DNA of 64,000 bases, taken from contig JAJDCQ010000159.1 in the NCBI GenBank assembly GCA_029260755.1, positions 1 through 64,000 of the forward strand, read 5' to 3'. The notes under the pieces are model-generated. The model searched no databases, was not told the DNA's origin, and saw nothing but the letters and a program-made list of their open reading frames with translations. This DNA is from Planctomycetota bacterium. Its GTDB lineage: Bacteria; Planctomycetota; J058; JAJDCQ01. The position numbers and the translations under genes were made by a program. Of this stretch, positions 28,514 through 49,075 are shown piece by piece. Numbering within the stretch: the stretch's first letter is position 1; the number at the start of each line of letters is the position of its first letter.

Positions 28514-29514
28514 ACGACCCCGCGCCCGAGAGAGGCCGACGAGCCCGCCGGGCGCCGATCGTCCTCGGCGTGCTCGGCGGGGCGACCCTCCTCGCGTTCC
28601 TCGGCGCCGGGCTGCTGTGGCGGGATCGAATCGAGGCGCGCCGCGCCGTCGCGGCGTGGCGGGAGGAGACGTCGCGGGTCATCGCGAGCGAGCGGATCGA
28701 CCTCGAGACGCTGGCGACGCTCCGGATCCACGACCTCCTCGGATCGATGCGCCCGCGCGACGGAGATGGCTGGCAGCGGGCGGTCGCCCGCGAGTCCGCG
28801 ATCTGGCGCCTCACCCCGCCGGGCGAGCATCTCGAAACGGCCCCCCGTCCCGAGGTGCGGGCCGAGCTTCGCGCCCTCCTCGGGACGGACGACGAACCGG
28901 TGATCCGCACCCTGGCGGGGTTCTATCTCATCGTCCTCGAGCCCGATCCGGAGTCCGTCGAGGCGCTCGTCCGGGCCGCCGAGGACGACCGGTCGAAGGT
29001 GGTCCGCCTGCAGCTCCTCCGGGCGATGAGCGTGACCGGACACGCCGAGGGCGCGAGGGTCGCCGCGGGGCTCCTCGACGACGGGGACGCCGAGGCGCGC
29101 CGCGCGGCGCTCCTGGCCCTGCGCCGATTCGGCCGGGCGTCCATCGAGCCGATCCTCGCGACCCTCGCCGCGCAGGCCGACGATCCGGCGAACCCGACCG
29201 CCCGGGCCCAGCGGATCGACGTCGCGACCGACCTGGAGATCGAGTTCCTGACCGACCCGAACGTCGAGCCGCTCCCGGGGCTCGAGGCGGCGGTGGGAGA
29301 CGCGCTCATCCCGATCGTGCGCGACCGCGGGGAGACCGACCGGACCCGCGCCTCCGCCGCGCTCGCGCTCCAGCTCTTCGACGTGAGGCGCGCGATCGAG
29401 GCGCTGAAGGCGATCCGAGACGAGCCGAACATCGCGGAGCGGCGCGAGCTCCACGACGCCGCGACAAGGGCCGTGAAGAGCCTGGAAGCCGGGGGACAGG
29501 ACCAGACTCGCTAG
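28510..29514 (+). CDS. Membrane-anchored HEAT-repeat-like protein
   Basis: TTG start overlapping the previous stop; N-terminal TM; 'RAAEDDRSKVVRLQLLRAMSVTGHAEGARVAAGLLDDGDAEARRAALLALRRFG'. Confidence 0.65.
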   Translation: MNDPAPERGRRARRAPIVLGVLGGATLLAFLGAGLLWRDRIEARRAVAAWREETSRVIASERIDLETLATLRIHDLLGSMRPRDGDGWQRAVARESAIWRLTPPGEHLETAPRPEVRAELRALLGTDDEPVIRTLAGFYLIVLEPDPESVEALVRAAEDDRSKVVRLQLLRAMSVTGHAEGARVAAGLLDDGDAEARRAALLALRRFGRASIEPILATLAAQADDPANPTARAQRIDVATDLEIEFLTDPNVEPLPGLEAAVGDALIPIVRDRGETDRTRASAALALQLFDVRRAIEALKAIRDEPNIAERRELHDAATRAVKSLEAGGQDQTR

Positions 29515-29615
29515 TGTGAATCGCAGGGGTCAGGTCCAGGATTCACACCAGAGGTGCCAGGTCACACCAGCCGCTGCGACAGTTTCGCTCCTGTAACTCC
29601 TGGGCCTGACCCCTC
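29515..29615. repeat. GGGGTCAGGTCCAGG-family palindromic repeat, copy 1
   Basis: gtgtgaatcgcaggggtcaggtccaggattcacac ... tcctgggcctgacccct. Confidence 0.85.
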
Positions 29616-29672
29616 GATGTGCGTTGCACGATGTGCGTTGCAAGCATGGCCGAGGTCCCCGGTGCAGTCGGG

Positions 29673-29811
29673 TGAGGCCACAGATTTCACAGATGGCCGC
29701 GGCGCGTTCCGAATCGCTGCCGATTTCGACCCGGAGCGCCGGCCACGTCGATGAACACTCGCCTTCGGCAGCTCGAAATCGGTGAAATCGGTGAAATCTG
29801 TGGCCTCCTCA
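29673..29811. repeat. Palindromic repeat with CCACAGATTTCAC ends
   Basis: tgaggccacagatttcacagat ... gaaatcggtgaaatcggtgaaatctgtggcctcctca; at least 17-bp perfect complementary ends. Confidence 0.88.
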
Positions 29812-29854
29812 TCTACCGGGCAACCCACGCGGGAGCTGAAGGGGGAGCGATGGG

Positions 29855-30433
29855 TCAGTCGAGGGTCCAGTCGCCGTTCTCCGCGACGCTCGAGCGAAGC
29901 GCCTCCTCGAAGACGGCGAGATCTCTCGCTTCGAACAGGCAGTAGCGGACCGTCATCACGCCCGACGAACCGTCGAGGTGCTCGACGATCGCGCCGAGCG
30001 CGATCGGGGCGGCTCTCTCGACGGGGAACTTGTAGACGCCGCACGAGATGGCCGGGAAGACGACGGATCGACACAGATCGTCGTCCGCGACCTCGAGGCT
30101 CCGGCGATGCGCCGATCCGAGCAGCTCGTCTTCCGCGCCGTCGTGGGCTCCCCAGATCGGGCCGACCGCGTGGATCACTCGGCGCGCGTCGAGCGCGCCG
30201 GCGTGCGTCGAGACCGCGTCGCCGGGCGCGCAGCCGCCGATCGCGGTGCAAGCCTCGAGGAGGCTCGGCCCGGCCGCTCGGTGAATCGCGCCGTCGACAC
30301 CGCCCCCGAAGCCGGCCTGGTTTCCGCCCGAGAGCGTCCGGTTCGCCGCCGTGACGATCGCGTCGGCGTGCTCTCTGGTGATGTCGTCGAGAACGACCTC
30401 GAGCGTCCTGCCTCGCTTCGATCGCGCCCGCAT
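29855..30433 (-). CDS. Macrodomain protein (ADP-ribose / O-acetyl-ADP-ribose hydrolase-like)
   Basis: 'DAIVTAANRTLSGGNQAGFGGGVDGAIHRAAGPSLLEAC...GDAVSTHAGALDARRVIHAVGPIWG...SVVFPAISCGVYKFPVERAAPIALGAI'. Confidence 0.93.
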   Translation of the reverse strand: MRARSKRGRTLEVVLDDITREHADAIVTAANRTLSGGNQAGFGGGVDGAIHRAAGPSLLEACTAIGGCAPGDAVSTHAGALDARRVIHAVGPIWGAHDGAEDELLGSAHRRSLEVADDDLCRSVVFPAISCGVYKFPVERAAPIALGAIVEHLDGSSGVMTVRYCLFEARDLAVFEEALRSSVAENGDWTLD

Positions 30434-30440
30434 CGACCCG

Positions 30441-32585
30441 CTATCCGTCGTCGTCGCGACGCAGATCCTTCGGGGGCATGTCGACCGTCTTCGGCGAGTC
30501 GAACGGATCGCGGAGGTCCTTCTTCGGTATCTCGATCGTCTCGGGGGCGTCGAACGGATCGGCGGTCGCCTTCTTCGCCTCCTCGGGCCGGAGATCCTTC
30601 CCCGGCATGAGGATCGTGTCGGGGGCGTCGAACGGGTCCGGGAGCGCGTCGGGGCGGAGGTCGCGGGGACGCATGTCGAGGGTGTCCTCCTCGTCGTCGC
30701 GCGGGTCGATCAGCTCGAAGCGAAGCAACCCCGATGCGCTCACGATGACGCTCGCCGCGTCGGGCCAGAACGCGGGGCTTCGGACGTCGCCGAGCAGCCG
30801 GAGGTCGATGCACTCGAGCTCGGACTGCGCCGACAGGTTCCAGATCCGGGCCGTTCCGTCGTCTCCGGTCGAGATCGCGTGGATCCCGTCGATCGCGAAC
30901 GCCACCCCGTTGATCCAGTGCTTGTGCCCCTTCAGGACCGCCCGCTGCGTCCCCTTCTCGAGGTCCCACACCCGGACCGTCCGGTCCTCGCTCCCCGAGA
31001 GCGCCCAGCGCCCGTTCGGCGAGATCGCGACGACGGTCACCTCGCGCTGGTGCCCCGTCAGCTCCCGCGGCTTCAGCTCCGCCTCGTCGAGCGCCCAGCG
31101 CTCGAGCACCCCGTCCCCCCGACCGTAGACGGCGATCCGCCCGTCGGGCGACAGGGCGAGGCAGGTCCGGGTCGCCTTCGGCTCCCCGAGGTCGACCCGT
31201 CGATCGGGCTTCCGCTCCCCGCCCTCCCCGACGCGCCAGTAACGGATCGAGGCGAACTCGCCGGCGCGCTCCTCGTGGCGGTCGTCGCCCGAGACGACCC
31301 GCTCGCCGTCGGGGAGGAAGCTCACCGCGACGACCGCCCCGCCGGGATGGTTGCACACCGCGAGCTGGCGCCGCTCCGCCACGTCCCAGACCCGCGCCGT
31401 CCCGTCGAAGGCGCCCGAGACGATCCGGCGCCCGTCGGGCGACACGGCCACGCACGCGACGGCCGACGCGTGCCCGACCATCCCGCCGAGCTCCCGGCCG
31501 GTCGCCGACTCCCACAGACGGAGCGTCCCCTCGGGACTTCCGGTGACGACGTGGTCGCCGACCGAGGTCGGCACGAGGCAGCTCGCCCGGTGCCCCTCGA
31601 CGATCTCGGCCTGCTTGGCCGTCCGCGTGTTCCAGAGGCGGACCTGGCGGTCGCGGCAGCCGCTCAGGACGCGCTCGCCGTCCTGCGCGAAGTCGACGGC
31701 CGTCACGATGCCCTCGTGCCCGTCGAAGAGCTCGAGCTCCGCGCCCCGCTCGAGATCCCAGAGGCGCAGCGTCATGTCCTCCCCGCCGGTCGCCGCCCTC
31801 TTCCCGTCGGGCGCGACGGCCACCGCGGCGATCCGGCCCTGGTGACTGCCGACCCAGCGAACGAGCCGGCCGTCGGCCAGGTCGTAGAGCCCGATCCGCC
31901 CGTCGCGCAGCCCGGCGACCGCCTGCTCGCCCGACGCCGCCACGGCGAGGCACGTGATCGGATCGGCGTGACCGGCGAGCGCCCGGATCGGATCGCCGGA
32001 CCGCGAGTCCCACACCTTGATGGTCCCGTCGAGGCTGCCGCTCACGAGCAGCTTCCCGCCGGGCACGATCGCGACCCCGGTCACCTCCGCCTCGTGGGCG
32101 TCGATCCGGAGGACCGCCTCGCCCTGGTCGAGATCCCACACCCGGACCTTGCCGTCGCGGTCGCCGGACATCGCGAAGTGGAGCCGCCGCGCGCACGTCA
32201 CCCGGGTCACCGGCGCCTCGTGGCCGGCGAGCCCGTGCCAGCCGCTCCCGCCGGAGAGGGCCCACACCCGGAGCGTTCGATCCTCGCTCGCGCTGATCGC
32301 ACGCGCGCCGTCGGGGACGACGGCGACGTCGGTGATCGGCGCGTCGTGCGCGTCGAACACCTTGAGGCACGATGCGGTCCGGAGGTCCCAGACGCGCGCG
32401 GTGCCGTCGCGCGCCCCGGAGATGGCCGAGGCGCCGTCCCGGAGGAAGCGCACCGCGGTGATCTCGTCGGCGTGGGCGAGCTCGCCCCGCCCCCAGACGT
32501 CCATCAGGCGCGTCCGGCGCAGCCCGCGCACCTCGCGCGCGACCGGCCAGTGGGCGGGGGGCGGGGACTTTCGCGTCGAGCTCAT
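30441..32585 (-). CDS. WD40 beta-propeller repeat protein with C-terminal short-motif repeats
   Basis: Many repeats e.g. 'AHADEITAVRFLRDGASAISGARDGTARVWDL', 'GHQREVTVVAISPNGRWALSGSEDRTVRVWDL'; ATG overlaps the upstream stop (ATGA). Confidence 0.95.
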   Translation of the reverse strand: MSSTRKSPPPAHWPVAREVRGLRRTRLMDVWGRGELAHADEITAVRFLRDGASAISGARDGTARVWDLRTASCLKVFDAHDAPITDVAVVPDGARAISASEDRTLRVWALSGGSGWHGLAGHEAPVTRVTCARRLHFAMSGDRDGKVRVWDLDQGEAVLRIDAHEAEVTGVAIVPGGKLLVSGSLDGTIKVWDSRSGDPIRALAGHADPITCLAVAASGEQAVAGLRDGRIGLYDLADGRLVRWVGSHQGRIAAVAVAPDGKRAATGGEDMTLRLWDLERGAELELFDGHEGIVTAVDFAQDGERVLSGCRDRQVRLWNTRTAKQAEIVEGHRASCLVPTSVGDHVVTGSPEGTLRLWESATGRELGGMVGHASAVACVAVSPDGRRIVSGAFDGTARVWDVAERRQLAVCNHPGGAVVAVSFLPDGERVVSGDDRHEERAGEFASIRYWRVGEGGERKPDRRVDLGEPKATRTCLALSPDGRIAVYGRGDGVLERWALDEAELKPRELTGHQREVTVVAISPNGRWALSGSEDRTVRVWDLEKGTQRAVLKGHKHWINGVAFAIDGIHAISTGDDGTARIWNLSAQSELECIDLRLLGDVRSPAFWPDAASVIVSASGLLRFELIDPRDDEEDTLDMRPRDLRPDALPDPFDAPDTILMPGKDLRPEEAKKATADPFDAPETIEIPKKDLRDPFDSPKTVDMPPKDLRRDDDG

Positions 32586-34120
32586 CGTTGCCGCCCGTCC
32601 TCGTCGTCGTCGTCGCCGCCGCCGTCGCCGTCGTCGCGCCCGGGCGCCGGTCGGAGATACACCCGGACGTTCCACGCCCGCCCCGCGACCGTCTCCTCGC
32701 CCAACCGCACCGCGTCGGGCTCGGTCCCCGCGAACGGCGCGACGCAGACCGCCGGGCGCTGCCCGAGATCCGGCGCGGCGCCGAGGCTCTCGACGATCCA
32801 CGCCTCGGTCCCGACCGCGACGATCGGCGCCGAGGCGACCGGCTCGGCCGCCGCGGCCCGGAGCGCCCGGGCCGCTGCGATCGCGCCGGTGAGATCCTGC
32901 TCCGGCCGCCCGGCGCGCTCGCGGTTCTGCATCTCCATCGGGACCACGATGACGATGACGAGCGCCGCCGCGCAGGTCCAGGCTGCGGCGCGCTGCCCAC
33001 GTCCCCCGAGTCGGGCGAGCGCGGCCAGCCCCGCCCCGCCGAGCACCCACAGCCCCGGCTGGAGGGCCACGAAGAAGCGGTGGTAGTGCTGCTCGCCCTC
33101 GCCGATCGCCACGCCGAGGCGCGGTCGGAAGAGGACGACGAGCGCCGCGATGAGCGCCGCTTGCCAGAGGAGCGGCCTGGCGACGGCGCCCAGCGCGGGA
33201 GCGTCGCGCCGACCGTTCGGTCCCAGGGCGAGGGCCACCCCGCCCACGATCAGACCGACCAGCGCGACCAGACCCACGGCGCCCACGACCCCGCCGCCCG
33301 CTCCGACGAGCAGCTCGGCCGACAGATCGATCAAGAACCCCGGGCCCGACGCGACCGACTCGACGCCGGTGTTCCGCCCCGCGAACCGCCAGAGGCGCGT
33401 GGCGATCGGCGCGACCGCGACCACGGACGCGACGAGCGCCCCGGCGGCGACGGCGACCGCGCGCCTGCTCCGGACGACGACGACCGCATCGAGCAGCAGC
33501 GCCGCGGCGACCAGCACGCCGAGCGGGTGGCTCCACGCGGCCAGGCCGCACCCGAGCACCGTGAGGGCTGGCCCGCGACGCGCCCCACCGGGCTCCGCCG
33601 GGTCCCCCGCGACGCGCGCCCATCCGAGGAGGGCGACCGTCGCGAACAGGACGAGCAGGCTGTAGCCCCGCGCCTGACGCGAGAGCTCCACGTGCATCGG
33701 CGAGAGCGCCGCGAGGAGGGCCGCGCCCGCTCCCGCACCGTCCCCCGCGACCGCCCGCGCCGCCAGCGCGACGACGAGCACGCCCGCGATCCCGGCGAGC
33801 ACCGCCGGCAACCTCAGCATCACGCGATACCGCGGCGACGCCGGAGCCGCGTCGGCGGAGACCATCGCCGTGCTCGCCTTCGCGGCGACCGAGAAGAGGA
33901 CGTGGTTGTTCGCCTCCTTCTGGGTCGACGGGATCTTCCAGATCGGGCGGTCGAGCACCCGCTCGGCGGTGAAGACCTCGTCGTACCAGAGCGAACGGTC
34001 GAGGCCGTGACACCGCAGCGCGACGCCGAGCGTCGCCGCGGAGAGGGCGGCCGCGACGGCCGCGGCGAACGCGAGGCGCGGTCCGGGCTCGCCCCCGCGT
34101 CCGGGCGCGGGGAGCGTCAT
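32582..34120 (-). CDS. Polytopic GT-C type glycosyltransferase-like protein (PMT/ArnT-like, GT39-like)
   Basis: 'LRCHGLDRSLWYDEVFTAERVLDRPIWKIPSTQKEANNHVLFSVAAKAS...LRLPAVLAGIAGVLVVALAARAVAG...LAALSPMHVELSRQARGYSLLVLFATVALLGW'; ATG overlaps the RT stop (ATGA). Confidence 0.88.
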   Translation of the reverse strand: MTLPAPGRGGEPGPRLAFAAAVAAALSAATLGVALRCHGLDRSLWYDEVFTAERVLDRPIWKIPSTQKEANNHVLFSVAAKASTAMVSADAAPASPRYRVMLRLPAVLAGIAGVLVVALAARAVAGDGAGAGAALLAALSPMHVELSRQARGYSLLVLFATVALLGWARVAGDPAEPGGARRGPALTVLGCGLAAWSHPLGVLVAAALLLDAVVVVRSRRAVAVAAGALVASVVAVAPIATRLWRFAGRNTGVESVASGPGFLIDLSAELLVGAGGGVVGAVGLVALVGLIVGGVALALGPNGRRDAPALGAVARPLLWQAALIAALVVLFRPRLGVAIGEGEQHYHRFFVALQPGLWVLGGAGLAALARLGGRGQRAAAWTCAAALVIVIVVPMEMQNRERAGRPEQDLTGAIAAARALRAAAAEPVASAPIVAVGTEAWIVESLGAAPDLGQRPAVCVAPFAGTEPDAVRLGEETVAGRAWNVRVYLRPAPGRDDGDGGGDDDDEDGRQR

Positions 34121-35511
34121 CCGCCCTGGAGCGCTTTCTCGAGGTCCTCGCGCAGGCGACGCCCCGCGTCGGCATCGACCATCTGGACGAACGACACCAC
34201 GCCGCGCAGGTGCGCCGCGAAGTCGCGGTGCCCGGCTCGATTCTGGCTGGCGAGGCCGTTCTTGCGGACGTTGTGGATGATCGCCCGCAGCCGCCGGCGC
34301 ACCGCCCGGCTGACCCCGACGCGCTCGTTCACGACGAGGCCGGTCACCTCCTGGCGACGCCCCTTCCGGAGCACGCGCGTCTTGTCGGGGTGCACCGCCA
34401 GCCCCTCGTCCTCGACGATCCGGCGGAGACCGCCCAGGATCTTCGGGATCGGGACGGCGCCGTCGCCCGAGAACGTGATGTCATCCGCGTAGCGAGTGAA
34501 CGCGAGCCCGCTCTTGCGGGCCAGCCCGGCGAGGCGCCGGTCGAGGCGACGGCACATGAGGTTCGTGAGCGCCGGGCTGGTGCACGCGCCCTGCGGCAGG
34601 ACGCGGTCGCCGAGCGCCACGTGGTAGAGCTTGTCGCCGACGCGGGTGGCGACGCGCGGCGGCTCGGTGCACAGGAGCGCGAGCATCGTCGCGATCGCCT
34701 CGCCGTAGCCGACCTTCCGGAAGAAGCCCTTCACCCGCTTGAACGTGAAGGTCGGGAAGAAGTCCTTCAGGTCGACGTTGATCACCACGTCGTGGCCGGC
34801 GTGGGGTCCGGCGTTGCTGACGATCGACCGCTCCCGGACGAATCCGTGGGCCTCGTCGCTCACGCCCAGCCGGTCGAGGATCTGCTCCTTCACCCAGCTC
34901 TGCGCGCGACGAAGGAGCGGGCGCGGCGAGCTGATCGCGCGCTCGCCGCCGCTCCGCTTCGGGATCGTGAACCGGATGTAGTGACAGACCGTCGCGGCCC
35001 GCCGGTGGTAGGTGAGCCATCGGAGCTTCTTGAGCTCGATCCCGATCGCCTCGGCGAGCTCCGCCGCCGTGCCGACCTGGGGCAGCCCGGCGAGGGCGAG
35101 CTTCGACGCGTCGCATCCGGTGTCGGACAGCCCGCCCGAGACGCCCTCGCCGAGGAACTCGGCGCCCGCCTGGACGCGCGCCGCCCACGCCTCGCGCCGC
35201 CGCGCCCGCTCGGCCTCGCGCTCCTTGCGCCGCTCCTCGCGGCGACGCTTGCTCTCCTCCATCCGGCGCTTGCGCTCTTCGGCGAGCGCGGCCTCGGGAT
35301 CGGAGACGGTGGCGTGCTTCGCTCGGAGCTCGGCCGCCCGCCGCTGCAGCTCGGCCTGCCGGCGGAGGAGATCGGCGAGCTCGTCGGGGAGCTCCTCGCC
35401 GTCGGGCCAGAACCCGAGCCGGATCATCTCGGAGAGGATGACCTCGTCCGCCGATGACTCGGCAATGCGCCGGTAGAGCTCGGCCTTCGTCAGCTTCTTT
35501 TCGTCGGCCAC
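34117..35511 (-). CDS. Retron-type reverse transcriptase
   Basis: 'IPKRSGGERAISSPRPLLRRAQSWVKEQIL', NAxxH 'SNAGPHAGHDVVINVDLKDFFPT', 'LPQGACTSPALTNLMCRRLDRRL', 'FTRYADDITFSG', VTG 'RRQEVTGLVVNE', 'HLRGVVSFVQMVDADAGRRL'; GTG start with aaggaag upstream. Confidence 0.95.
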   Translation of the reverse strand: MADEKKLTKAELYRRIAESSADEVILSEMIRLGFWPDGEELPDELADLLRRQAELQRRAAELRAKHATVSDPEAALAEERKRRMEESKRRREERRKEREAERARRREAWAARVQAGAEFLGEGVSGGLSDTGCDASKLALAGLPQVGTAAELAEAIGIELKKLRWLTYHRRAATVCHYIRFTIPKRSGGERAISSPRPLLRRAQSWVKEQILDRLGVSDEAHGFVRERSIVSNAGPHAGHDVVINVDLKDFFPTFTFKRVKGFFRKVGYGEAIATMLALLCTEPPRVATRVGDKLYHVALGDRVLPQGACTSPALTNLMCRRLDRRLAGLARKSGLAFTRYADDITFSGDGAVPIPKILGGLRRIVEDEGLAVHPDKTRVLRKGRRQEVTGLVVNERVGVSRAVRRRLRAIIHNVRKNGLASQNRAGHRDFAAHLRGVVSFVQMVDADAGRRLREDLEKALQGG

Positions 35512-35514
35512 CCG

Positions 35515-35570
35515 TGCTCGCTTCCTTCGGGACTCGCCTGCTGCCGATGCTCGCTTCCTTCGGGACTCGC
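35515..35570. repeat. Two tandem copies (33-bp period) of tgctcgcttccttcgggactcgc just upstream of the RT start
   Basis: Identical 23-mers at 35515-35537 and 35548-35570; related copy at 35867-35889. Confidence 0.85.
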
Positions 35571-35596
35571 TGAACACGCCATCCAGGTGAAGAGGT

Positions 35597-35849
35597 GGAG
35601 AGAGAGACGAGGCCGGCTCCGCCGAACGCCCTACGTCATGCCGAGGACCTGACCGGTCGACTGAAGCGGGAGACGGATATCCGTCCCCTGTGGACCGGGG
35701 ACCCGGTCGTACCAGCACAGGGGACGGATATCCGTCTCCCGCGTGGGAAGGCCGGGCTGGTGATGGAAGAGCGGCGTGAAAGCCACCGCGGCGTAACGCC
35801 GCGAAAAGGCTAAGGTCGCGCCGGCTTCGTCGTCCCCGTCTCTCCCTCC
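35597..35849 (-). ncRNA. Retron msr-msd ncRNA candidate
   Basis: a1 GGAGGGAGAGACGGGG (35834-35849) pairs with a2 CCTCGTCTCTCTCTCC (35597-35612), 16 bp including 2 G-U; extended by GCCGGC/GCCGGC and CCTTA/TAGGG; TTAGC branch site (G at 35810); msr hairpin CGCGGCG-TTA-CGCCGCG; perfect 27-bp msd stem; lies directly upstream of the retron RT on the same strand. Confidence 0.88.
35666..35742 (-). repeat. Perfect 27-bp inverted repeat forming the predicted msd stem
   Basis: gcgggagacggatatccgtcccctgtg (35666-35692) and cacaggggacggatatccgtctcccgc (35716-35742). Confidence 0.97.
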
Positions 35850-35866
35850 GTGTGTGCCCTGCGAGT

Positions 35867-35889
35867 CGCTCGCTTCCTGCGGGGCTCGC
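35867..35889. repeat. Third, diverged copy of the 23-mer on the other side of the ncRNA
   Basis: cgctcgcttcctgcggggctcgc vs tgctcgcttccttcgggactcgc. Confidence 0.7.
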
Positions 35890-37281
35890 TCATCGAACCG
35901 CGGGCGCCCCGGCGCTCCACGGCAACGGCTCGCGGAACAGCTCCCGGTGCCGGTACGCCCCGGCGACCAGGTCGAAGATCCCGCGTCCGCTCTGACAGAT
36001 CCGGCTCGCCGCGTTGCGCACGGCGTCCACCTCGAGCTTCACATCGCCGGCGAGCTCGCCGAGCGTCGCCCGCTTGCGGGTCCGGAGCGCCTCGAAGACG
36101 CGCTCGATCTCGTGGGTCGAGACCGCTTCCATCCGATCGATCTCGTGGTAGTCGTGCTTCGCCTCGTCGGCCCACTGCTTCCGGGTCCAGGCGGACATCC
36201 CGAGGGTGAAGCTGACGTCCGCCTGATCGACGGTGATGAAGCTCGGCATCCCGTCGGCGAGGAGATGCACCCGCGCCGCCCGGCAACCGGGCAGGAGCCG
36301 CTCGAGCAGCTTCAGCCGATCGCGCCCCCACATCTTCACCTCGCGAGGCTTCTCGCCGTGATAGACGGTCGCCGGCGACAGCTCGCGCTCGACCTTCCAC
36401 GGCTCGAAGACGACCCGCGTCCGCTCGCCGGGGGTGAGCTTCCAGAGGAGCCACCGCGGGCTCACCCGCGCCTTGTGCCCCTTGAGGAAGCCGATGATGT
36501 CGTAGAGGTCGATGGGAGTCAGCGCGACCCCGCTCGGCCCGAGCGTCATCGCGCTCTGCACCTGAAGGAGCCCCGCGAGCCACGAGTCGGGCAGGTCGAT
36601 CTTCTTCTCGTGGTGGGCCGGCGCGTCGTCGGTCGCCACCTCGAAGCCGCCCGGATCGACCTCGAACCGGGTGCGCCGGTAGGTCCGCATCCGCTGGAGC
36701 TCGCGGTGGAGCCCGAGCGAGAAGTCGACGTTCGTCGTGCCGGTCGCCATCTCGTCGACCCGCTCGAAGACCGAGTAGCGCACGCCGAGCTTGGCATAGG
36801 TCGACTCGTCCTTGCTGAAGCACTCGAAGAACAGCTCGTCGGGCGCGACGGTGATGATCGGGTCGAGGACGAGCCAGGCGTCGTAGTCGCGCTTGTAGAG
36901 GTACTGGAAGTACTGGAGCTTCGCCTTCTCGAACGGCGCCATGAGCGACTGCTTCTTCGCGAAGAGCTCGGCGAGCTCGTCGTGGACCCGGTCGAGCTGC
37001 GCCTTGACCGCGCCCTCGACGATCCCGAGCTGATCGAGGTAGATCCGGTCCTGCTCGGCGAGCCACGCCTCGTACGCCGGCCGCGACTTCGGCTGGTAGC
37101 GGAGGTCGGAGACGACGACGTCGTAGAGGGCCGCGAGCGCATCGCGGAACGTGACCGGCCGGGCGAGCTGCCCGCGGAAGAACGTCGGCTCGCGCGAGAG
37201 GTCGGGCGCGAAGCTCACATCGGTCCCGCGGAGGCTGCTCCGGATCCGGCTCGCGCCCGCGTAGGCGTGGGTCAGCTGCAT
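35890..37281 (-). CDS. Retron-associated winged-helix-like protein (possible type XIII 'WHSWIM'-like partner, no SWIM motif seen)
   Basis: 'MQLTHAYAGASRIRSSLRGTDVSFAPDLSREPTFFRGQLARPVTFRDALAALYDVVVSDLRYQPKSRPAY...'; C-terminal HTH-like 'RKRATLGELAGDVKLEVDAVRNAASRICQSGRGIFDLVAGAYRHRELF'; ATG overlaps the HEAT gene stop by 10 bp. Confidence 0.8.
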   Translation of the reverse strand: MQLTHAYAGASRIRSSLRGTDVSFAPDLSREPTFFRGQLARPVTFRDALAALYDVVVSDLRYQPKSRPAYEAWLAEQDRIYLDQLGIVEGAVKAQLDRVHDELAELFAKKQSLMAPFEKAKLQYFQYLYKRDYDAWLVLDPIITVAPDELFFECFSKDESTYAKLGVRYSVFERVDEMATGTTNVDFSLGLHRELQRMRTYRRTRFEVDPGGFEVATDDAPAHHEKKIDLPDSWLAGLLQVQSAMTLGPSGVALTPIDLYDIIGFLKGHKARVSPRWLLWKLTPGERTRVVFEPWKVERELSPATVYHGEKPREVKMWGRDRLKLLERLLPGCRAARVHLLADGMPSFITVDQADVSFTLGMSAWTRKQWADEAKHDYHEIDRMEAVSTHEIERVFEALRTRKRATLGELAGDVKLEVDAVRNAASRICQSGRGIFDLVAGAYRHRELFREPLPWSAGAPAVR

Positions 37282-39806
37282 GCCGGACCCTCCAGCGCGA
37301 GCGGGACGTCGAGCTCGGGCCAGCGGAGCTTCACCGCCGCGAGCGTCTCGAGGGCGCCCTCGAGGTCGAGCCGGCCGTGCGCGTGGACGAGCTCGCCGAG
37401 GACGTCGATGACGACCCGCGCCGAGGTCGCATCCTCGAGCGCCCGCTCCCGGAGGAACACGACGAGGCGCCGCTTCACCGCGCGATGCTGATGCTGGCGC
37501 ACCGAGAAGAGGACCCGCTTGAAGAACCCGCGCAGCCGGAGCATCGGGTCGGGCCCTGGCGCCGCGTGCGCGAGGACGAGCTCCGCCGCCCGCAGCCGCA
37601 CCCGGGGCGCCGGGTGCTCGGCGAGGCGCTCGTAGAGCTCGGCGATCGGCAGGCTCGCGAGGTTCTCGCGCACGAGCGACCAGCCGAGGTCCTGCACATC
37701 CGATCGGTTGCTGTCGCACAGCCCGACGACCCCGTCGATGCCCAGGCGGAGGAGGTCGAGCCGGTCGCGGGCGAGGTCGATCGCGAAGACGCGGGTGTCG
37801 TCCCAGTCGCTCTCGAGGAGACACAGCACCGCCGAGGGGTCGTCGCGGAAGTGCGCGATCCCGCGCTCGATCAGCCCGCGGCCCGCCGCGCGGACGCTCG
37901 CGACCTCGTCGTCGGCGAGGTCGACGATCCGGCCGAACCCGACCTCCTCGGGGTCGACCTCGAGGCGCGCGAGGACGGAGCCCATCAGCTCGCGCGCCGC
38001 CGGCGACCCGGTCGCGAGGGTGTCGAGCGCCTCGATCGCCGGCGTCCGCTGCACGAGCTCGTCCAGGAGATGCGTCCGGATGAACCGGACGAGCTCGGCG
38101 TGGACGCCCTCACTCGTCTCCTCGACGCGGAGGGCGATGAGGAGACGCCGCAGCAGCTCGCCGCGCCAGGCGCCATCGGTTCCCGCGAGGATCTCCGCGG
38201 CGAGGCGACCGACGACGGCGCGCGTCTCGGGATGCCGCGCGCACAGGAACCGCCGCACCCGCTCGGCGTCGCCGCGCCAGGCGCCCACGCTCCGCTCGAG
38301 CATCTCGTCGCCGAGGCCGCGCACCCGGGCGGCGTCGTGGCCGATGAGGCGGTCGATCAGATCGAGGTCGGGCGCGGCCGGGTCGAACCGCCGGCGGAGC
38401 TCATCGATGCCGAGCTGCGCGACCTCGCCGAGGACGCCGTCGAGCATCGCGATGAGGACCGCGTCGTCGACGCCCTCGAGGAGCCCGCGGTCGGCGTGGG
38501 CATCCCGGTAGACGTCGTAGGCGAACCTGGCGACCTCGCGCGAGCGCGCCTCGGCGAACAGCCGGACGACGGCAGCCCCGTCCGCGTTCCAGAGCTCGGG
38601 GAACGGCTCGTGGCGGCTCCGGTCGCGGCGGAGGTCGCGGCGGAGCTCGGCGTTGCGCTCGGCCCCGCCGCCGCCCGTCTCGATCCGGTGCTGCCCCATC
38701 GATCGCGTGAGGGTGATGACGAACATCCCGCTCCGACCCCGCCCGTCCTCGAGCCCGTACTGGAGCAGGATCTCGACGGCGAGCCGGGTGTACCCGGCCG
38801 GCTCGTTCCGACCGAGATCGCCGAGGGTCCGCTCGACCTCGCGGAGGGCCCACCTCCGGGTGGCGGCCGAGAAGATCGAGGTGTAGCCCGGCTTCCGGGT
38901 GAGGCTCATAGCGAGCTTGTGCCAGCCGCCGCCGGAGCGCGATCGCTCGATGATGTAGGCGAGGCGCCCGATCACCGCCGCGTCGCGCCGCCAGATCGCG
39001 CGCTTGAAGACCGACTTCACCGCGACCCAGTAGTCCTTGCGCGAGATCGTGCACCACGCGCGCCCGTCGTCGCCGCGGATGAGCGGGATCGACCGGAGCC
39101 AGTGGAGCACCGCGGCGACCGCGACGGGCGTGCCGAGCTCGTAGAGGTCATCGATGAGCTCGCCCTTCTGCGCGGTGGCGTTGCCGACGGCGATGTGGAG
39201 CGCGTCGGTCGCCGGTCCGTTCGCCGGAAGCTCGCGGAGGAGGGCGCCGACCTCGGGGTCGCGGGCCGCGATCCGGGCGAGCGCCTTGTCGGCGACCTCG
39301 CCGAGGCCGCTCGTCGTCGGACCGAGCAGGCGAAGCGCCTCGACGCCGGCGCGCCGCTTGTGCTGGTCGGGGCTGCTCGCCAGCTCGCGGAGGAGGATGG
39401 CCGCCTTGTCGTCGCCGAGCCGGCCGAGCGCGCGGGCGACGTCGTGGAGGTCGGCCCACCCGCCGGCGAGTAACTTCAGGAGCGGCTCGAACGCGCGCGG
39501 GTCGCCGATCCGTCCGGCGCGCCGGGCGCCGTGGCCCTTGCGCCGGTCGTCGCGGGCTGCGAGGTCCTCGAGCGCCCAGCCGAGGCCGGACGGCTCGTAG
39601 CCCTCGCGCGCGAGCTCCGCGCCGATCGCGTCGGCCCGGGCGAGCGCCGCCTCGAGCGAGACCGGTCCCTCGGCCGGGCGCTCGGAGCGCGTCCCGTCCT
39701 TTCGCTGCTCGACGACTCGAACCTCCCACTGATCGCCGCAAACCTCAGCGGCGATCGTGATCCTGGTCCGGGTCCTCGGCTGGTAGAAACGGCGGGTTGG
39801 GAGCAC
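37272..39806 (-). CDS. Large HEAT/ARM-repeat protein, retron-associated
   Basis: 'RAGRIGDPRAFEPLLKLLAGGWADLHDVARALGRLGDDKAAILLRELASSPDQHKRRAGVEALRLLG...'; 844-aa ORF; start codon uncertain. Confidence 0.85.
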   Translation of the reverse strand: MLPTRRFYQPRTRTRITIAAEVCGDQWEVRVVEQRKDGTRSERPAEGPVSLEAALARADAIGAELAREGYEPSGLGWALEDLAARDDRRKGHGARRAGRIGDPRAFEPLLKLLAGGWADLHDVARALGRLGDDKAAILLRELASSPDQHKRRAGVEALRLLGPTTSGLGEVADKALARIAARDPEVGALLRELPANGPATDALHIAVGNATAQKGELIDDLYELGTPVAVAAVLHWLRSIPLIRGDDGRAWCTISRKDYWVAVKSVFKRAIWRRDAAVIGRLAYIIERSRSGGGWHKLAMSLTRKPGYTSIFSAATRRWALREVERTLGDLGRNEPAGYTRLAVEILLQYGLEDGRGRSGMFVITLTRSMGQHRIETGGGGAERNAELRRDLRRDRSRHEPFPELWNADGAAVVRLFAEARSREVARFAYDVYRDAHADRGLLEGVDDAVLIAMLDGVLGEVAQLGIDELRRRFDPAAPDLDLIDRLIGHDAARVRGLGDEMLERSVGAWRGDAERVRRFLCARHPETRAVVGRLAAEILAGTDGAWRGELLRRLLIALRVEETSEGVHAELVRFIRTHLLDELVQRTPAIEALDTLATGSPAARELMGSVLARLEVDPEEVGFGRIVDLADDEVASVRAAGRGLIERGIAHFRDDPSAVLCLLESDWDDTRVFAIDLARDRLDLLRLGIDGVVGLCDSNRSDVQDLGWSLVRENLASLPIAELYERLAEHPAPRVRLRAAELVLAHAAPGPDPMLRLRGFFKRVLFSVRQHQHRAVKRRLVVFLRERALEDATSARVVIDVLGELVHAHGRLDLEGALETLAAVKLRWPELDVPLALEGPACS

Positions 39807-41460
39807 GCTGCTCCTCCCTGGCCTTCTGTCGCTGGGCCCACCGACGCTGGTAGGTCGCCCACGCCTTGAAGATCACGAACGCGAGCGCCGCGAGCATGAT
39901 CCACAGGTAGATCTTCTTCTGCGGCCGCTTGGGCCCACGCAGCTCCTCGGGCAGCCACTGCTGGCCGAGCGGCGGGCGCTGATCGCGCCGGCTCGAGCGG
40001 CGCGGCGCCGCCCCGGTCGCCACGGCGGCGCCCGCCGCGGCCGCCTTCGGGCGCACCGCCTTCGCGTCCTTCGGCGGCGGCGCGAACTCGCGCGTGACCG
40101 TCTCGGGGCGCGGTCCGTAGGCGCGCTCGATCGCGCGGACGACCGCGTCGGGGCGGGCGAGGCCGACCGAGACGGCGCCGCCGGTGAGGCGGCCGACGAC
40201 GTCGACGACGGCGCCGAGCCCGCCGGGATCGGCGGCCGCGACGTGGAGGGTGTCGCCGTCGATCCGCAGCGGCGCGAGTCGATACGCCTCGGCGACCTGG
40301 CGCGGGAGGCGATCCAGCGCCGCCTTCTGCCCGACCGGACCGGGGTCGTTCGAGCCGCCGTCGAGGTCGATCCAGGCGAGCCCGAGCTGCTCGGCGACGG
40401 CCGCGCCGACCTCGTCGCTCGCCGACAGACCGACCAGCGCGAGCGCCTCCTCGAGCGGGCCCCCGTCGCGGCTCTGGAGGGCGAGCGCGTCGGCGACCCG
40501 CGCTGCCCGCTCGGTCCGCTCGGCGCTCGCGTCCGCGTCGACGCCGCTCGCCTCGGTCGGGCCGTCGCTCCGCGCCGCGCGCGTGGCGGCCGTCTCGACA
40601 CGCGACCGGGCCGGCCCCGGCAGCGTCTCGCGGATCGCCCGGGCGAGCTCCGCGGCGTTCGCGAACCGGGCGTCGGGGCGCTCCTCGAGGCAGCGCAGGA
40701 CGAGCGGCCGGACCTCGTCGGGGAGCCGCCCCTCGCGGACGACCCGCGGCGCGGTGCCGGTGACGAGGCGGTAGATCATCGCGCCGACGCCGTAGATGTC
40801 GGCGCGCGGGTCGACCGAGCGCGCGTCCTCGCGCTGCTCGGGCGCCATGTAGTCGAGCGTCCCCACGACCGCGCCGTCGCGGGTGAGGGTGTCGGCGAGC
40901 GACTGGATCTCCTCGACGCGGGCGAGGCCGAAGTCGCAGAGCTTCGCGACGCGCGCGCGGGTGAGGAGCACGTTCGCCGGCTTCACGTCGCGGTGAACGA
41001 CCCCGGCGTCATGGGCGTGGCCGAGGGCGGCGACGACGCCGTGGACGATCTCGAGCGCGTCGGGCCAGTCGAGAGTGCCGCGCTCGCGGACGTGGCGCTC
41101 GAGGTCGGGGCCGTCGACGTGCTCCATGACCAGGGCGATGCCGTCGTCGGCATCGACCACCTCGTGCAACGCGACGATGTGGGGGTGGCGGAGCTGCGCG
41201 ACGGTGCGCGCCTCGCGGAGCATCCGTTCGGCCGCCGCGGCGCCGGTCCGGGTGAGCAGCTTGATCGCGACGGCGCCGGCGCTCGCGGAGGACCCGATCG
41301 GCCGGGCGAGGATGACGACGCCCATCCCGCCGCGGCCGAGCTCCCGCTCGGGCACGTAGCGCTCGGCGAGGTCGCCGGGAAGGGCGACCTCGACGCCGGG
41401 TCGGACCGAGCGATCGGCCTCCCCGGGATCATCGAGACTGTGGACGAAACGCTCCGTCAT
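39745..41460 (-). CDS. Ser/Thr protein kinase fused to GspE-N/MshEN-like domain and C-terminal TM
   Basis: 'YVPERELGRGGMGVVILARP...VVHRDVKPANVLLTRARVAKLCDFGLARV...GTLDYMAPEQRED'; then 'AEQLGLAWIDLDGG...LPRQVAEAYRLAPLRIDGDTLHVAAADPGGLGAVVDVVGRLTGGAVSVGLARPDAVVRAIERAYG'; C-terminal 'IYLWIMLAALAFVIFKAWATY'. Confidence 0.92.
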   Translation of the reverse strand: MTERFVHSLDDPGEADRSVRPGVEVALPGDLAERYVPERELGRGGMGVVILARPIGSSASAGAVAIKLLTRTGAAAAERMLREARTVAQLRHPHIVALHEVVDADDGIALVMEHVDGPDLERHVRERGTLDWPDALEIVHGVVAALGHAHDAGVVHRDVKPANVLLTRARVAKLCDFGLARVEEIQSLADTLTRDGAVVGTLDYMAPEQREDARSVDPRADIYGVGAMIYRLVTGTAPRVVREGRLPDEVRPLVLRCLEERPDARFANAAELARAIRETLPGPARSRVETAATRAARSDGPTEASGVDADASAERTERAARVADALALQSRDGGPLEEALALVGLSASDEVGAAVAEQLGLAWIDLDGGSNDPGPVGQKAALDRLPRQVAEAYRLAPLRIDGDTLHVAAADPGGLGAVVDVVGRLTGGAVSVGLARPDAVVRAIERAYGPRPETVTREFAPPPKDAKAVRPKAAAAGAAVATGAAPRRSSRRDQRPPLGQQWLPEELRGPKRPQKKIYLWIMLAALAFVIFKAWATYQRRWAQRQKAREEQRAPNPPFLPAEDPDQDHDRR

Positions 41461-41712
41461 CGAGGGGCTCCGAGAGCCGTCCGAGGGGCGTATCGTAGGG
41501 CCCCCCGGCGCGTGAATCAACGCGCCGGCCCGCCCCTCCGATGGGGCGGACCCGCAGGCGCAACCCTCGGCGCCCCATAGGGCGGACCCCGGTCTCGCGC
41601 CGGCCCCGAGGCTTTGACGACGCGGAGTCACTCTGCTACCCTCATCACCGAGGTTCTGGAACTATTTGGCCCGCGCTGTGGGCCCCGCAAACCACCCACC
41701 GGAAGCGACCTC

Positions 41713-42555
41713 ATGGCATTCGGATCCTTCGGTGGCTCCGACAAGAAGCCCAAGCGGCAGAGTCACTGCCTCGTCGGAGCCGTCTTCAAGTTCGGCGTCA
41801 AGCAGCTTCGCCCGCAGGACGTCTACTCGATCGGCCGCGACCCGCGCTCGCGCATTCACCTGCCGAGCGACACCGTCAGCCGGCGCCACGCGACGATCCG
41901 CTGGACCGACGAGGCCGGCGGCGGGTTCATCGTCGAGGACAACGGCAGCCGAAACGGCGTCAAGGTCAACAACGAGCAGGTCAAGAAGCAGCACTTCCTC
42001 TCGGACGAGGACCTGATCTCGATCAACCCGTTCAACCTCCGCTACCGGGTCATGGTCGGCGACCTCGACATGATCATGCTGAGCGAGACCGCCGGCAGCG
42101 AGGAGACCCGCCCGCTCGACGCCGAGAGCGCCGGGATGGCGGCGGTCGACGCCGGCCCCGACGCGACCCTCTCGGGCAAGTTCCTCGGCCAGGAGCTCGT
42201 CGAGATCTGCCAGCTCATCGTGCAGAACAAGCGCACCGGCGTCCTCGAGGTGAAGGGCCAGATGCACGGCGGTCTCCTCCAGTTCGAGCGCGGCAAGCTG
42301 ATGCGCGCCGAGGCGAGTCGGCTCTCGGGCAAGGACGCCGCCCGGGCGCTCCTGACGATCCCGTCGGGAACGTTCAACTTCAGCCGTCAGGGCGGCAAGT
42401 CGGACCTCTCCGGCGAGCCGATCGACCTGACCGAGCTCCTCGCCGAGCTCGCCCCGCCGAAGGACGAGTCGGCCGTCGCCGGCGGACGCAGCGGCTCGAC
42501 GACCGTCCTCGACGTCGGCAGCAGCGACGTCGGAAACGACACGCTCGCCGAGTAG
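41713..42555 (+). CDS. FHA domain plus DUF4388 protein
   Basis: 'VYSIGRDPRSRIHLPSDTVSRRHATIRWTDEAGGGFIVEDNGSRNGVKVNNEQV'; 'LSGKFLGQELVEICQLIVQNKRTGVLEVKGQMHGGLLQFERGKLMRAEASRLSGKDAARALLTIPSGTFNF'. Confidence 0.92.
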   Translation: MAFGSFGGSDKKPKRQSHCLVGAVFKFGVKQLRPQDVYSIGRDPRSRIHLPSDTVSRRHATIRWTDEAGGGFIVEDNGSRNGVKVNNEQVKKQHFLSDEDLISINPFNLRYRVMVGDLDMIMLSETAGSEETRPLDAESAGMAAVDAGPDATLSGKFLGQELVEICQLIVQNKRTGVLEVKGQMHGGLLQFERGKLMRAEASRLSGKDAARALLTIPSGTFNFSRQGGKSDLSGEPIDLTELLAELAPPKDESAVAGGRSGSTTVLDVGSSDVGNDTLAE

Positions 42556-42630
42556 CCCTCCCCCGCGGGCGATGATCACTCCCTGGTCACACGGTCCTGC
42601 GATCCCGGGTCCCCGAGATCGCCGGAGCCT

Positions 42631-42760
42631 CTGGTGTGAATCGAAGGGGTCAGGTCCAGGAATCACACGAGCGAATCTGTCGCAGCAGCTCGTGTGACCC
42701 GGCCCTCTGGTGTGAATCCTGGACCTGACCCCTGAAATCGGACCTGACCCCTGAAATCAC
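42631..42760. repeat. GGGGTCAGGTCCAGG-family repeat, copy 2, with tandem duplicated arm
   Basis: aggggtcaggtccaggaatcacac ... gtgtgaatcctggacctgacccctgaaatcggacctgacccctgaaatca. Confidence 0.88.
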
Positions 42761-42800
42761 GATAGCGGCGCGGTGAGCTCTCGGGGACGATCCCGTTCCG

Positions 42801-45800: not shown

Positions 45801-47318
45801 GGCGAGCTCATCGAGAACGGCCGCCGACCCCTCCCAGATGACGTCGGCGAGCCCCATCCCCAGGGCGGAGAGGACGCCCGCCATCGGGTGGAGCAGGACG
45901 GTCCGGATCCCGAGCGACCGGGCGAGGGCGCACGCGTGCTGCGCGCCGGCGCCGCCGAAGCAGCAGAGGGCATCGTCGCGGACGTCGTGACCGCGGGCGA
46001 CCGAGAGCTCCTTGATCGGCTTGGCCATCGCCTCGTTCGCGATCCGGAGGAAGCCGGCCGCGACCTCCTCGACGCCCGGGCGGCGCCCCGTCGCACGCTC
46101 CACCGCGGCGGCGATCGCCTCGAGCCGGGCGCGGCTGGCGTCGACGTCGAGCGCCCGGTCGCGACCGGGGCCGAAGCAGGCCGGGAACCAGCGCGGCTGG
46201 ATCCGTCCGAGGACCGCGTTCGCGTCGGTCACCGCCGGCGGACCGCCGCGCCGGTAGCAGGCGGGGCCCGGGTCGGCGCCGGCGCTCTCCGGGCCGACCG
46301 TGAAGCGACGCCCATCGAACGCCAGCACCGAGCCGCCGCCGGCGGCGACGGTGACGACCTCGAGCATCGGCGACTGGAGCCGCACCCCGGCGATCCGGGT
46401 CTCGTAGACCCGGTCGAGGCGCCCGTGCCAGCGGCAAACGTCGGTCGAGGTGCCGCCCATGTCGAAGCCGATGATGCTCTCGAGCCCGGCGGCGCGGCTG
46501 ACGTGCGCCGCGGCGACGACGCCGCCGGCGGGGCCGCTCAGGATCGCGTCCTTCCCGCTGAACCGATCGGCGGAGGCGAGCCCGCCGTTACTCTGCATGA
46601 AGCGAAGGTCGACGCCGTCGCCGAGCGGCCGGCGGACGCGGCCGACGTAGTCGCGCAGCGTCGGGGTGAGGTAGGCGTCCACGCAGGCCGTGTCGCCCCG
46701 GGCGACCACCTTGATCTCGCGGGCGGCCCGATGGCTCAGGCTGACGTGCTCGAACCCGACCTCACGGGCGACCCGACCGACGGCGAGCTCGTGCTCGGGC
46801 GCGGCGTAGCTGTGGAGGAAGACGACCGCGACGCTGCGCACGCCCGCGGCGCGGACCGCCTCGAGGTCGGCCCGGACCCGGGCGAGGTCCGGGACGCGCC
46901 GGACGGAACCGTCGGAGAGCACCCGCTCGTCGACCTCGACGGTGTGGTGAACGAGCGGCTCGGGCTTCTCGATCGCGAGGGCGAACAGGTCGGGACGATC
47001 CTGATAGCCGATCGCGAGGACGTCGCCGAAGCCGCGGGTGACGACGAGGCAGACCGGCTCGCCCTGCCGCTCGAGGAGCGCGTTCGTCGCGACCGTGGTC
47101 CCCATCCGGACCGTGCCGATCCGCGCGGCCGGCAGCCCGTCCTTCGCGGAGGCGAGTCCGAGGAGCTCGGCGATCGCCTGGAGCCCGGCGTCATCGTAGG
47201 CCGGATCCTCGGAGAGGAGCTTGCGAACGTGGAGGGCGCCGTCGGGGTCGCGGGCGACGACGTCGGTGAAGGTGCCGCCGCGGTCGATGAAGAAGCGCCA
47301 GCGACCGGGCTCGCTCAC
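42801..47318 (-). CDS. 5-oxoprolinase/hydantoinase (HyuA + HyuB) fused to a C-terminal DUF1445 (D-glutamate cyclase-like) domain
   Basis: HyuA '[19 protein letters not shown]...[14 protein letters not shown]'; HyuB '[44 protein letters not shown]'; DUF1445 '[51 protein letters not shown]...[15 protein letters not shown]...[10 protein letters not shown]'. Confidence 0.93.
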
Positions 47319-49075
47319 TTCATCCGGAGGCAGACGACGGTGACGTCGTCATCCTCGACGTCCTGGGCCGCGCCCTTTCGACGGAGGACCTCGGCGACGA
47401 GGCCGTCGGCGAGCTTCTGGGGCGCGACGTCGGGACGCTTTCGGTGGGCCTTCTCGATGAGCTGGACGAAGCTGTGCATCCCGCCGGAGCCGAGCGCCTT
47501 CTCGACGCCGTCGGTGAACAGGACGACGAGGTCGCCGCTCTCGAGCTTGAGCCCCTTTTCCGTGTAGGTCCCCTCGGCATCGGGCCCGACGCCGAGCGGC
47601 TGTCCGCCGAGGTCGAACGCGCTGCACTTGCCGTCGGCCTTGCGCCAGAGGATCAGGGGGCGGTGGCCGGCGCCGCTCACGACGAAGTGGCCGCGCTCGC
47701 CGTCCCAGAAGACGACGCCGACCGTCATCTGCTGGGTGCCCTCGGTGTCGGCGTGGATGAACTTGTTGACCGCCTCGAGGACGCGCTTGGGGCTCGGCCG
47801 CCACAGGGCCAGGCTGTGGAAGTAGCTCCGGGCCGAGGCGAGGACGAGGCCGGCGGCGAGGCCGCTGCCCTTCACGTCGCCGATGCAGAGGTAGAGGCAG
47901 TCGTCGTCGGGGCACTCGAGGTAGTCGTAGTAGTCGCCGCCGACCTCCTGAGCCATCTCGCTGCGACCGCCGACGACGAAGGCGTCCATCTCGGGAGGCT
48001 GCTTCGGGAGGAGATGGCGCTGGATCGAGGCGGCGAGCTTGAGCTCGTGGCGCATCTTCTCCTGGGACTTCTGGAGTCGGGCGAGGCGCGCGTTCTCGAG
48101 CGAGAGGGCTGCCTGGCTGGCGATCGCGTTCAGGAACGCGAGGTCGTCCTCGGTGAAGACGCTGACGCCGTCGGAGTCGATGTTGATGATGCCCGCGACG
48201 TCGTCCTGGACGAGGAGCGGCGCGCAGAGGGCGCTCCGGATCCGGAGCGACTCGACGCTCGAGGTCCCGCTGAAGCGGTCATCGCCCATGGCGTCGCGGC
48301 TCATGCAGGCGATCTTGTTCGTGCAGACCTCGCGGATGATCGACTTGCTCACCTCGGCCGTCTTGCCCGGGTGGCTCGCCATCCGGCGCATGCCGCCCTG
48401 GTCGTCGAGGACGAGGATCGAGCCGCGGTCGGCCGGGATCTCCTTCAGGATCTTGGCGAGCAGCTTCTTGAAGAACTGCTTCATGCTGCCGCCGATCGCG
48501 GTGGGGCCCGCGCCGACCAGCGCGGCCACGTCGAGGAGCGCCTTCATCCGACGTCCGGCCTTCGCCCGGTCCTCGATCTTCTCGATGTACTCGAGCGCGT
48601 CGCCGCCGCCGTCGGTCGGCGCGGTGCCGATGATCTTGGCGGGCTTCTCGGCGGGGACGACGACCTCGGAGATCGACTCGCCGGTCAGCTCATCGCTGGG
48701 GGCGTCGTAGAGGAGGACGAGGTCGCCGACGGTCAGGACGTCGCCGTGGCGGACGCGCAGCTTGGTCCCGAAGGGCTTGCGGTAGCGCCCGTTGAGGATC
48801 AGGTCGGCGTGCTCGTCGTTGTTCTGGACCTCGATCCGGTCGACGTCGGCGACGATCGTGGCGAGGGAGCCGGGCTTGTCGCCCGGCTCGATCGCGAGGC
48901 CGTCATCGGTCGGGAGGATGCAGGAGCGTCCGAGCGAGAGCGAGATCGCCTCGCACCGTCCGGGTCCGTTGAGCTGGATGAATCGAGCGTTTTCGCCCAC
49001 GCCGTGAGTGCCCCAACCTCTTGTGCGGTCGGCAGTCGGGAAGAGTCGCGGCGCCGCCCGCCGAGCGCCGACCAT
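47315..49075 (-). CDS. SpoIIE-type phosphatase with N-terminal FHA-like and GAF domains
   Basis: GAF '[54 protein letters not shown]'; SpoIIE '[14 protein letters not shown]...[40 protein letters not shown]...[13 protein letters not shown]'; start could be downstream. Confidence 0.9.

What the first reader, a model, noticed from the sequence alone, without database searches (positions are those of the whole stretch)
30444..30683. WD40 protein C-terminal tail with four T-phi-x-phi-x-x-[KR]-DLR repeats
The last 80 residues contain TLDMRPRDLR, TILMPGKDLR, TIEIPKKDLR and TVDMPPKDLR, three preceded by DPFD[AS]P-x. Each Thr has a hydrophobic residue at +3, matching the general pT-x-x-[I/L/V]-type preference of FHA domains. 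The window encodes a Ser/Thr kinase in the same cluster and FHA proteins nearby (41713-42555; 47315-49075). Inference: multisite phosphorylation platform linking the kinase/FHA signalling to the retron neighbourhood.
Basis: partly seen in the sequence, partly recalled or inferred. Interest (0 to 1): 0.72.

Follow-up and report, generated by a model that had tools for sequence, protein, structure and literature searches.

The report
Threonine-repeat tail on a WD40 sensor
A bacterial protein built like the sensing half of a receptor kinase ends in a floppy tail with four copies of a threonine-centred sequence, which looks like a multi-site phosphorylation or docking tail; it sits beside an anti-phage retron but is not part of it.

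Summary
Gene 32585-30441(-) encodes a 714-aa WD40 protein. Its last ~80 residues carry four T-Φ-x-[MI]-x-x-[KR]-D-L-R repeats, three preceded by DPFD[AS]P and the first by DPRD. The tail is predicted disordered. The repeats differ mostly at third codon positions. The propeller matches the WD40 sensor halves of kinase-TM-WD40 receptors and of a lipoprotein in a related genome; all of those stop where this tail begins. No tailed relative was found.

One further motif copy appears in the 12.3-Mb genome (HMM E = 0.012). It lies ahead of the kinase domain of a kinase-TM-WD40 receptor whose upstream neighbour is an FHA-GAF-GGDEF gene; that FHA lacks the usual phosphothreonine contacts. Other STPK-pathway proteins in this genome carry their own Thr-centred arrays, one of them a kinase-less TPR receptor next to a kinase.

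Best reading: a kinase-uncoupled receptor sensor whose tail is a multisite Ser/Thr-kinase substrate or docking array (about 0.45). FHA recognition is unproven. The retron link fails: the neighbours form an ordinary type XIII retron, and 86 such RT loci lack adjacent WD40 and macro genes. Nearby kinases and FHA proteins mean little here (at least 150 kinases, 113 FHA domains).

The parts
30441..32585 (-). WD40 protein gene, 714 aa, begins MSSTRKSPPP; 4-bp ATGA overlap with the upstream gene
   Evidence: WD40 Pfam hits; GC3 0.95
30696..32519 (-). WD40 propeller region (residues 23-630)
   Evidence: PF00400 and others; AlphaFold2 pLDDT mostly above 80, all beta; same end point as receptor WD40 domains
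30444..30683 (-). C-terminal tail (80 aa) with four Thr-centred repeats; predicted disordered
   Evidence: pLDDT below 50 for nearly all of residues 633-714 and no secondary structure after residue 635
30654..30707 (-). Repeat 1 DPRDDEEDTLDMRPRDLR
30588..30638 (-). Repeat 2 DPFDAPDTILMPGKDLR
30510..30560 (-). Repeat 3 DPFDAPETIEIPKKDLR
30459..30509 (-). Repeat 4 DPFDSPKTVDMPPKDLR (directly abuts repeat 3)
32582..34120 (-). PMT_2-like (GT39-type) membrane protein, weak match; overlaps RT and WD40 genes by 4 bp each
   Evidence: PF13231 E 4.9e-5, below cut-off
29855..30433 (-). Macro-domain protein, 7 bp after the WD40 stop
   Evidence: (PF01661 E 7e-36)
34117..35718 (-). Type XIII retron reverse transcriptase (RT proper 34120-35511)
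   Evidence: (RT_XIII E 4e-171)
35890..37281 (-). Type XIII retron SWIM protein
   Evidence: SWIM_XIII E 2.8e-158
37272..39806 (-). Type XIII retron WGR/HEAT protein (start codon uncertain)
   Evidence: WGR_XIII E 3e-91, HEAT-ARM_XIII E 5e-52
39745..41460 (-). Ser/Thr kinase with MshEN domain and C-terminal TM helix; no copy of the tail motif
   Evidence: sequence
41614..42555 (+). FHA + DUF4388 protein with canonical GR / SxxH / N residues; divergently oriented

Best explanation
The gene encodes a kinase-uncoupled relative of the WD40 sensor half of bacterial kinase-TM-WD40 receptors. It has lost kinase and membrane anchor (or never had them) and gained an 80-residue disordered tail with four copies of DPxD...T-[ILV]-x-[MI]-x-x-[KR]-D-L-R. 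The propeller would bind a partner. The tail would be a multisite substrate or docking array for one of the genome's many Hanks-type Ser/Thr kinases, with Thr as phosphoacceptor in an acidic context and hydrophobic residues at +1 and +3. The phosphorylated sites would recruit phosphothreonine readers such as FHA proteins cooperatively. Shown here: the repeats, peptide-level constraint, predicted disorder, receptor-like propeller, and a fifth motif copy ahead of a kinase domain. Inferred: phosphorylation, which kinase, and which reader.
For: Repeats real and constrained at peptide level. Tail has pLDDT below 50 and no secondary structure, on a confident propeller. Closest own-genome propellers are the sensor halves of kinase-TM-WD40 proteins at C67:101521 and C193:44912; they and the related-genome lipoprotein end exactly where this tail begins. 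An HMM of the four repeats finds one further copy in 12.3 Mb (E 0.012): DEQDTVDLPARDLR about 25 residues ahead of the kinase domain of a kinase-TM-WD40 receptor, ~50 bp downstream of an FHA-GAF-GAF-GGDEF gene. Acidic residues at -2 to -5, which favour phosphorylation by most M. tuberculosis STPKs (Prisic et al., as cited in PMC6030727), occur ahead of all copies, though only weakly in copy 4. Parallel case: a kinase-less MshEN-like/TPR receptor with five RTVE[VIL] repeats next to a kinase, and a double kinase with about 8 TF[LM][DE] repeats.
Against: No phosphorylation data exist. The tail is absent from the closest relative and not found in the other genomes searched, so cross-species constraint cannot be shown. 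The nearby window kinase lacks the motif. The FHA next to the motif-bearing kinase lacks the usual pThr contacts (GR replaced by GS, SxxH by AxxH; by eye). The single extra copy is weak alone: the loosest core is expected 0.46 times per proteome. Thr is not clearly special: clusters of X-phi-[DE]-phi also occur for Ala and other residues. The conserved DLR lies outside any kinase or FHA recognition window known to me, which suits a docking motif equally well.
Confidence: 0.45

Rival explanations
1. The repeats are a multivalent docking array of short linear motifs read without phosphorylation, for example DPFD plus phi-x-phi-P-x-[KR]-DLR gripping a partner protein. Thr is conserved for contact reasons; the WD40 protein is a scaffold.
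For: The most invariant columns are D1, P2, D4, T8 and DLR, not only Thr; the conserved footprint (17 residues) is longer than a kinase or FHA site; tail disordered; four similarly built copies suggest avidity.
Against: The only other copy in the genome is next to a kinase domain and other kinase-pathway proteins carry Thr arrays. No partner known.
Confidence: 0.3
2. A lineage-specific, largely neutral expansion of a disordered tail by old duplications, without a specific function.
For: Absent from the closest relative and from the other genomes searched; other private short repeats, including Pro/Ala-rich ones, occur in this genome.
Against: Third-position-biased differences and invariant DPxD, T and DLR among diverged copies; a near-identical motif in an unrelated position of a receptor kinase.
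Confidence: 0.17
3. The WD40 protein with its tail is an accessory or effector of the type XIII retron, linking it to kinase/FHA signalling.
For: Same strand and closely spaced, overlapping 4 bp via the PMT-like gene, downstream of a complete WGR/HEAT-SWIM-RT set.
Against: In 86 type XIII RT loci (many truncated by contig ends) SWIM is found in 69 and the HEAT/WGR protein in 42, but the WD40 gene in only 4 (all ~7-9 kb away), macro and PMT genes in none, a kinase in 8.
Confidence: 0.04

Closest known systems
Kinase-TM-WD40 receptors (Hanks-type STPK with WD40 sensor)
   Same: Propeller 27-37% identical, shared RT-L entry motif and IDL...VGTxRGxxLxF end
   Different: Here no kinase domain, no TM helix, and an extra 80-aa tail
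Phosphothreonine-FHA modules of mycobacterial STPKs (PknQ-MupFHA, PMC4238996; PknB/PknG-GarA)
   Same: Acidic-context Thr sites; kinases and FHA proteins abundant in the genome
   Different: No phosphorylation shown; a longer conserved footprint including DLR; four tandem sites on a propeller protein
Eukaryotic multisite Thr clusters read by FHA domains (e.g. MDC1/XRCC1-type; from general knowledge)
   Same: Repeated Thr motifs in a disordered segment beside a folded scaffold
   Different: Unrelated sequence; bacterial; reader unknown
Type XIII retron (PADLOC RT_XIII/SWIM_XIII/WGR_XIII)
   Same: Genomic neighbour, full three-gene set present
   Different: WD40/PMT/macro genes are not part of it in other genomes

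Membership tests
WD40 sensor of STPK-WD40 receptors | Propeller homologous to receptor sensors with the same boundaries | tested here: met
WD40 sensor of STPK-WD40 receptors | Fused kinase domain and TM helix | tested here: not met
   Gene begins MSSTRKSPPP directly ahead of the propeller
pThr-FHA phosphorylation platform | Multiple Thr sites in disordered segment | tested here: met
pThr-FHA phosphorylation platform | Motif shared with other kinase-pathway proteins of the genome | tested here: inconclusive
   One extra copy, HMM E 0.012, next to a kinase domain
pThr-FHA phosphorylation platform | Phosphorylation by a kinase and binding by an FHA domain | not testable with these tools
   Needs experiment; the FHA next to the motif-bearing kinase looks degenerate, the window FHA at 41614-42555 is canonical
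pThr-FHA phosphorylation platform | Repeats conserved in orthologues | tested here: not met
   Closest homologue has no tail; none in 197 other genomes or in the GTDB pattern scan. No genome of the same genus or family was available.
Type XIII retron component | Recurrent association with RT_XIII loci | tested here: not met
   WD40 in 4 of 86 and distant; macro and PMT in 0
Type XIII retron component | Neighbouring genes form a complete RT/SWIM/WGR-HEAT set | tested here: met

The most novel reading that the evidence does not exclude
In this lineage, sensor halves of receptor kinases have repeatedly been split from their kinase and given disordered Thr-motif arrays (WD40 tail here; RTVE array on a kinase-less TPR receptor at C247), creating a class of kinase-less receptor adaptors that are phosphorylated in trans and integrate several kinases.
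Probability: 0.2. Interest if true: 0.65.

Novelty: new variant of a known kind. Interest (0 to 1): 0.4.

Why it matters
Some bacteria carry hundreds of Ser/Thr kinases, yet how these pathways keep their wiring apart is hardly known. Kinase-less sensor proteins with repeated Thr motifs would be a concrete, testable adaptor layer, similar in logic to multisite phospho-scaffolds of eukaryotes. The sequence gives four defined sites and a candidate kinase to test.

Tried and rejected
Retron membership: rejected by survey of 86 RT_XIII loci. Proximity to kinase/FHA as evidence: rejected, they are very common in this genome. DNA-level tandem array: none. Other tails of this kind: none in plasmids, none confirmed in GTDB species contigs, none significant in 197 other genomes of the phylum; remaining hits were scattered partial matches. 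DPFD as a genome-wide motif: other hits unrelated. Test for Thr-specific clustering of X-phi-[DE]-phi across 682,000 aa: Thr gives 3 clustered proteins against 0.0 in shuffles, but Ala, Asp and others also exceed shuffles, so not decisive. Rfam search for a retron RNA or other RNA at 29000-42800: nothing. Paper searches for type XIII retron biology found nothing under those terms; the primary paper on mycobacterial STPK motifs is not held.

Full report
What is there. The WD40 gene runs 32585-30441 on the minus strand (714 aa, start MSSTRKSPPP); the longer 1244-aa ORF is read-through of another frame. The tail holds four repeats at 30707-30654, 30638-30588, 30560-30510 and 30509-30459. Invariant positions are D-P-x-D, Thr and D-L-R. 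Shuffled tails essentially never reproduce even one copy (2 of 200,000). Differences among copies 2-4 are mostly at third codon positions, so the peptide has been kept. The tail has normal coding composition. AlphaFold2 with five related propellers gives an all-beta propeller region with good confidence and a tail below pLDDT 50 with no structure.

What the propeller is. Its best relatives are a 35%-identical lipoprotein WD40 in a genome of the same order and, in its own genome, the sensor halves (beyond the transmembrane helix) of kinase-TM-WD40 proteins (C67:101521, C193:44912). All share the entry motif and the end motif IDL...VGTxRGxxLxF, and all stop there. The tail is therefore an add-on, and the protein is a sensor without kinase or anchor.

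Where the motif recurs. An HMM of the four repeats, run on the whole genome and 197 others of the phylum, gives one further hit of note in its own genome (C209:63165-63212, E 0.012). It lies in the N-terminal segment of a kinase-TM-WD40 receptor: MDHPPPRDEQDTVDLPARDLRQDLPP..., with the kinase domain from residue 45. Directly upstream is an FHA-GAF-GAF-GGDEF gene and above that another kinase. This FHA, read by eye, lacks the Arg and Ser that normally hold the phosphate, so it may not read pThr. Hits in other genomes are no better than chance. The loosest core is expected 0.46 times per proteome, the fuller consensus 0.0006 times (the consensus includes the hit, so the second number is optimistic).

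A wider pattern, weakly supported. In sampled sequence the same genome holds a kinase-less MshEN-like/Zn-ribbon/TM/TPR receptor with five RTVE[VIL] repeats plus a looser sixth, next to a kinase gene (C247, L116), a double kinase with about eight TF[LM][DE] repeats (C145, L107) and a kinase with three TGLTP[IV]PV repeats (C77, L119) (MshEN-like, Zn-ribbon and TM read by eye, TPR by Pfam). The C247 motif is private to that protein in the class. A residue-swap control does not prove Thr specificity.

Neighbourhood. Genes 37272-39806, 35890-37281 and 34117-35718 are a complete type XIII retron set. In 86 RT_XIII loci from diverse phyla the SWIM and HEAT proteins recur, while WD40, PMT-like and macro genes do not.

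How it most likely works. Binding at the propeller and multisite Thr phosphorylation of the tail by an STPK would let the protein gather pThr-binding partners. The acidic residues before Thr fit the reported preference of mycobacterial STPKs (PMC6030727, citing Prisic et al.); hydrophobic +3 preference of some FHA domains is from general knowledge. The DLR and DPxD elements are unexplained by kinase or FHA recognition and keep a phosphorylation-independent docking array as a serious rival.

Verdict. Observation confirmed; interpretation partly supported; retron link not supported. New variant of a known kind, moderate interest.

Noticed in passing
window 34117-39806: Complete type XIII retron (WGR/HEAT, SWIM, RT) with ~380 bp between SWIM and RT where the non-coding RNA could lie; Rfam finds nothing there.
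   Followed up: partly
L116:5523-9161 (G000:C247): Kinase-less MshEN-like/Zn-ribbon/TM/TPR receptor with five RTVE[VIL] repeats and a looser sixth, directly upstream of a Ser/Thr kinase gene.
   Followed up: partly
L107:4481-10759 (G000:C145): Protein with two tandem Ser/Thr kinase domains, an FGE-sulfatase domain and about eight TF[LM][DE]-phi repeats in its N-terminal linker.
   Followed up: partly
L075:8277-10424 (G000:C209): FHA-GAF-GAF-GGDEF protein with apparently degenerate FHA, in a cluster with two receptor kinases.
   Followed up: partly
window 29855-34120: PMT-like membrane protein, WD40 protein and macro-domain protein packed with 4-bp overlap or 7-bp gap, an arrangement not seen in the related loci examined.
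   Followed up: partly
   Followed up: no
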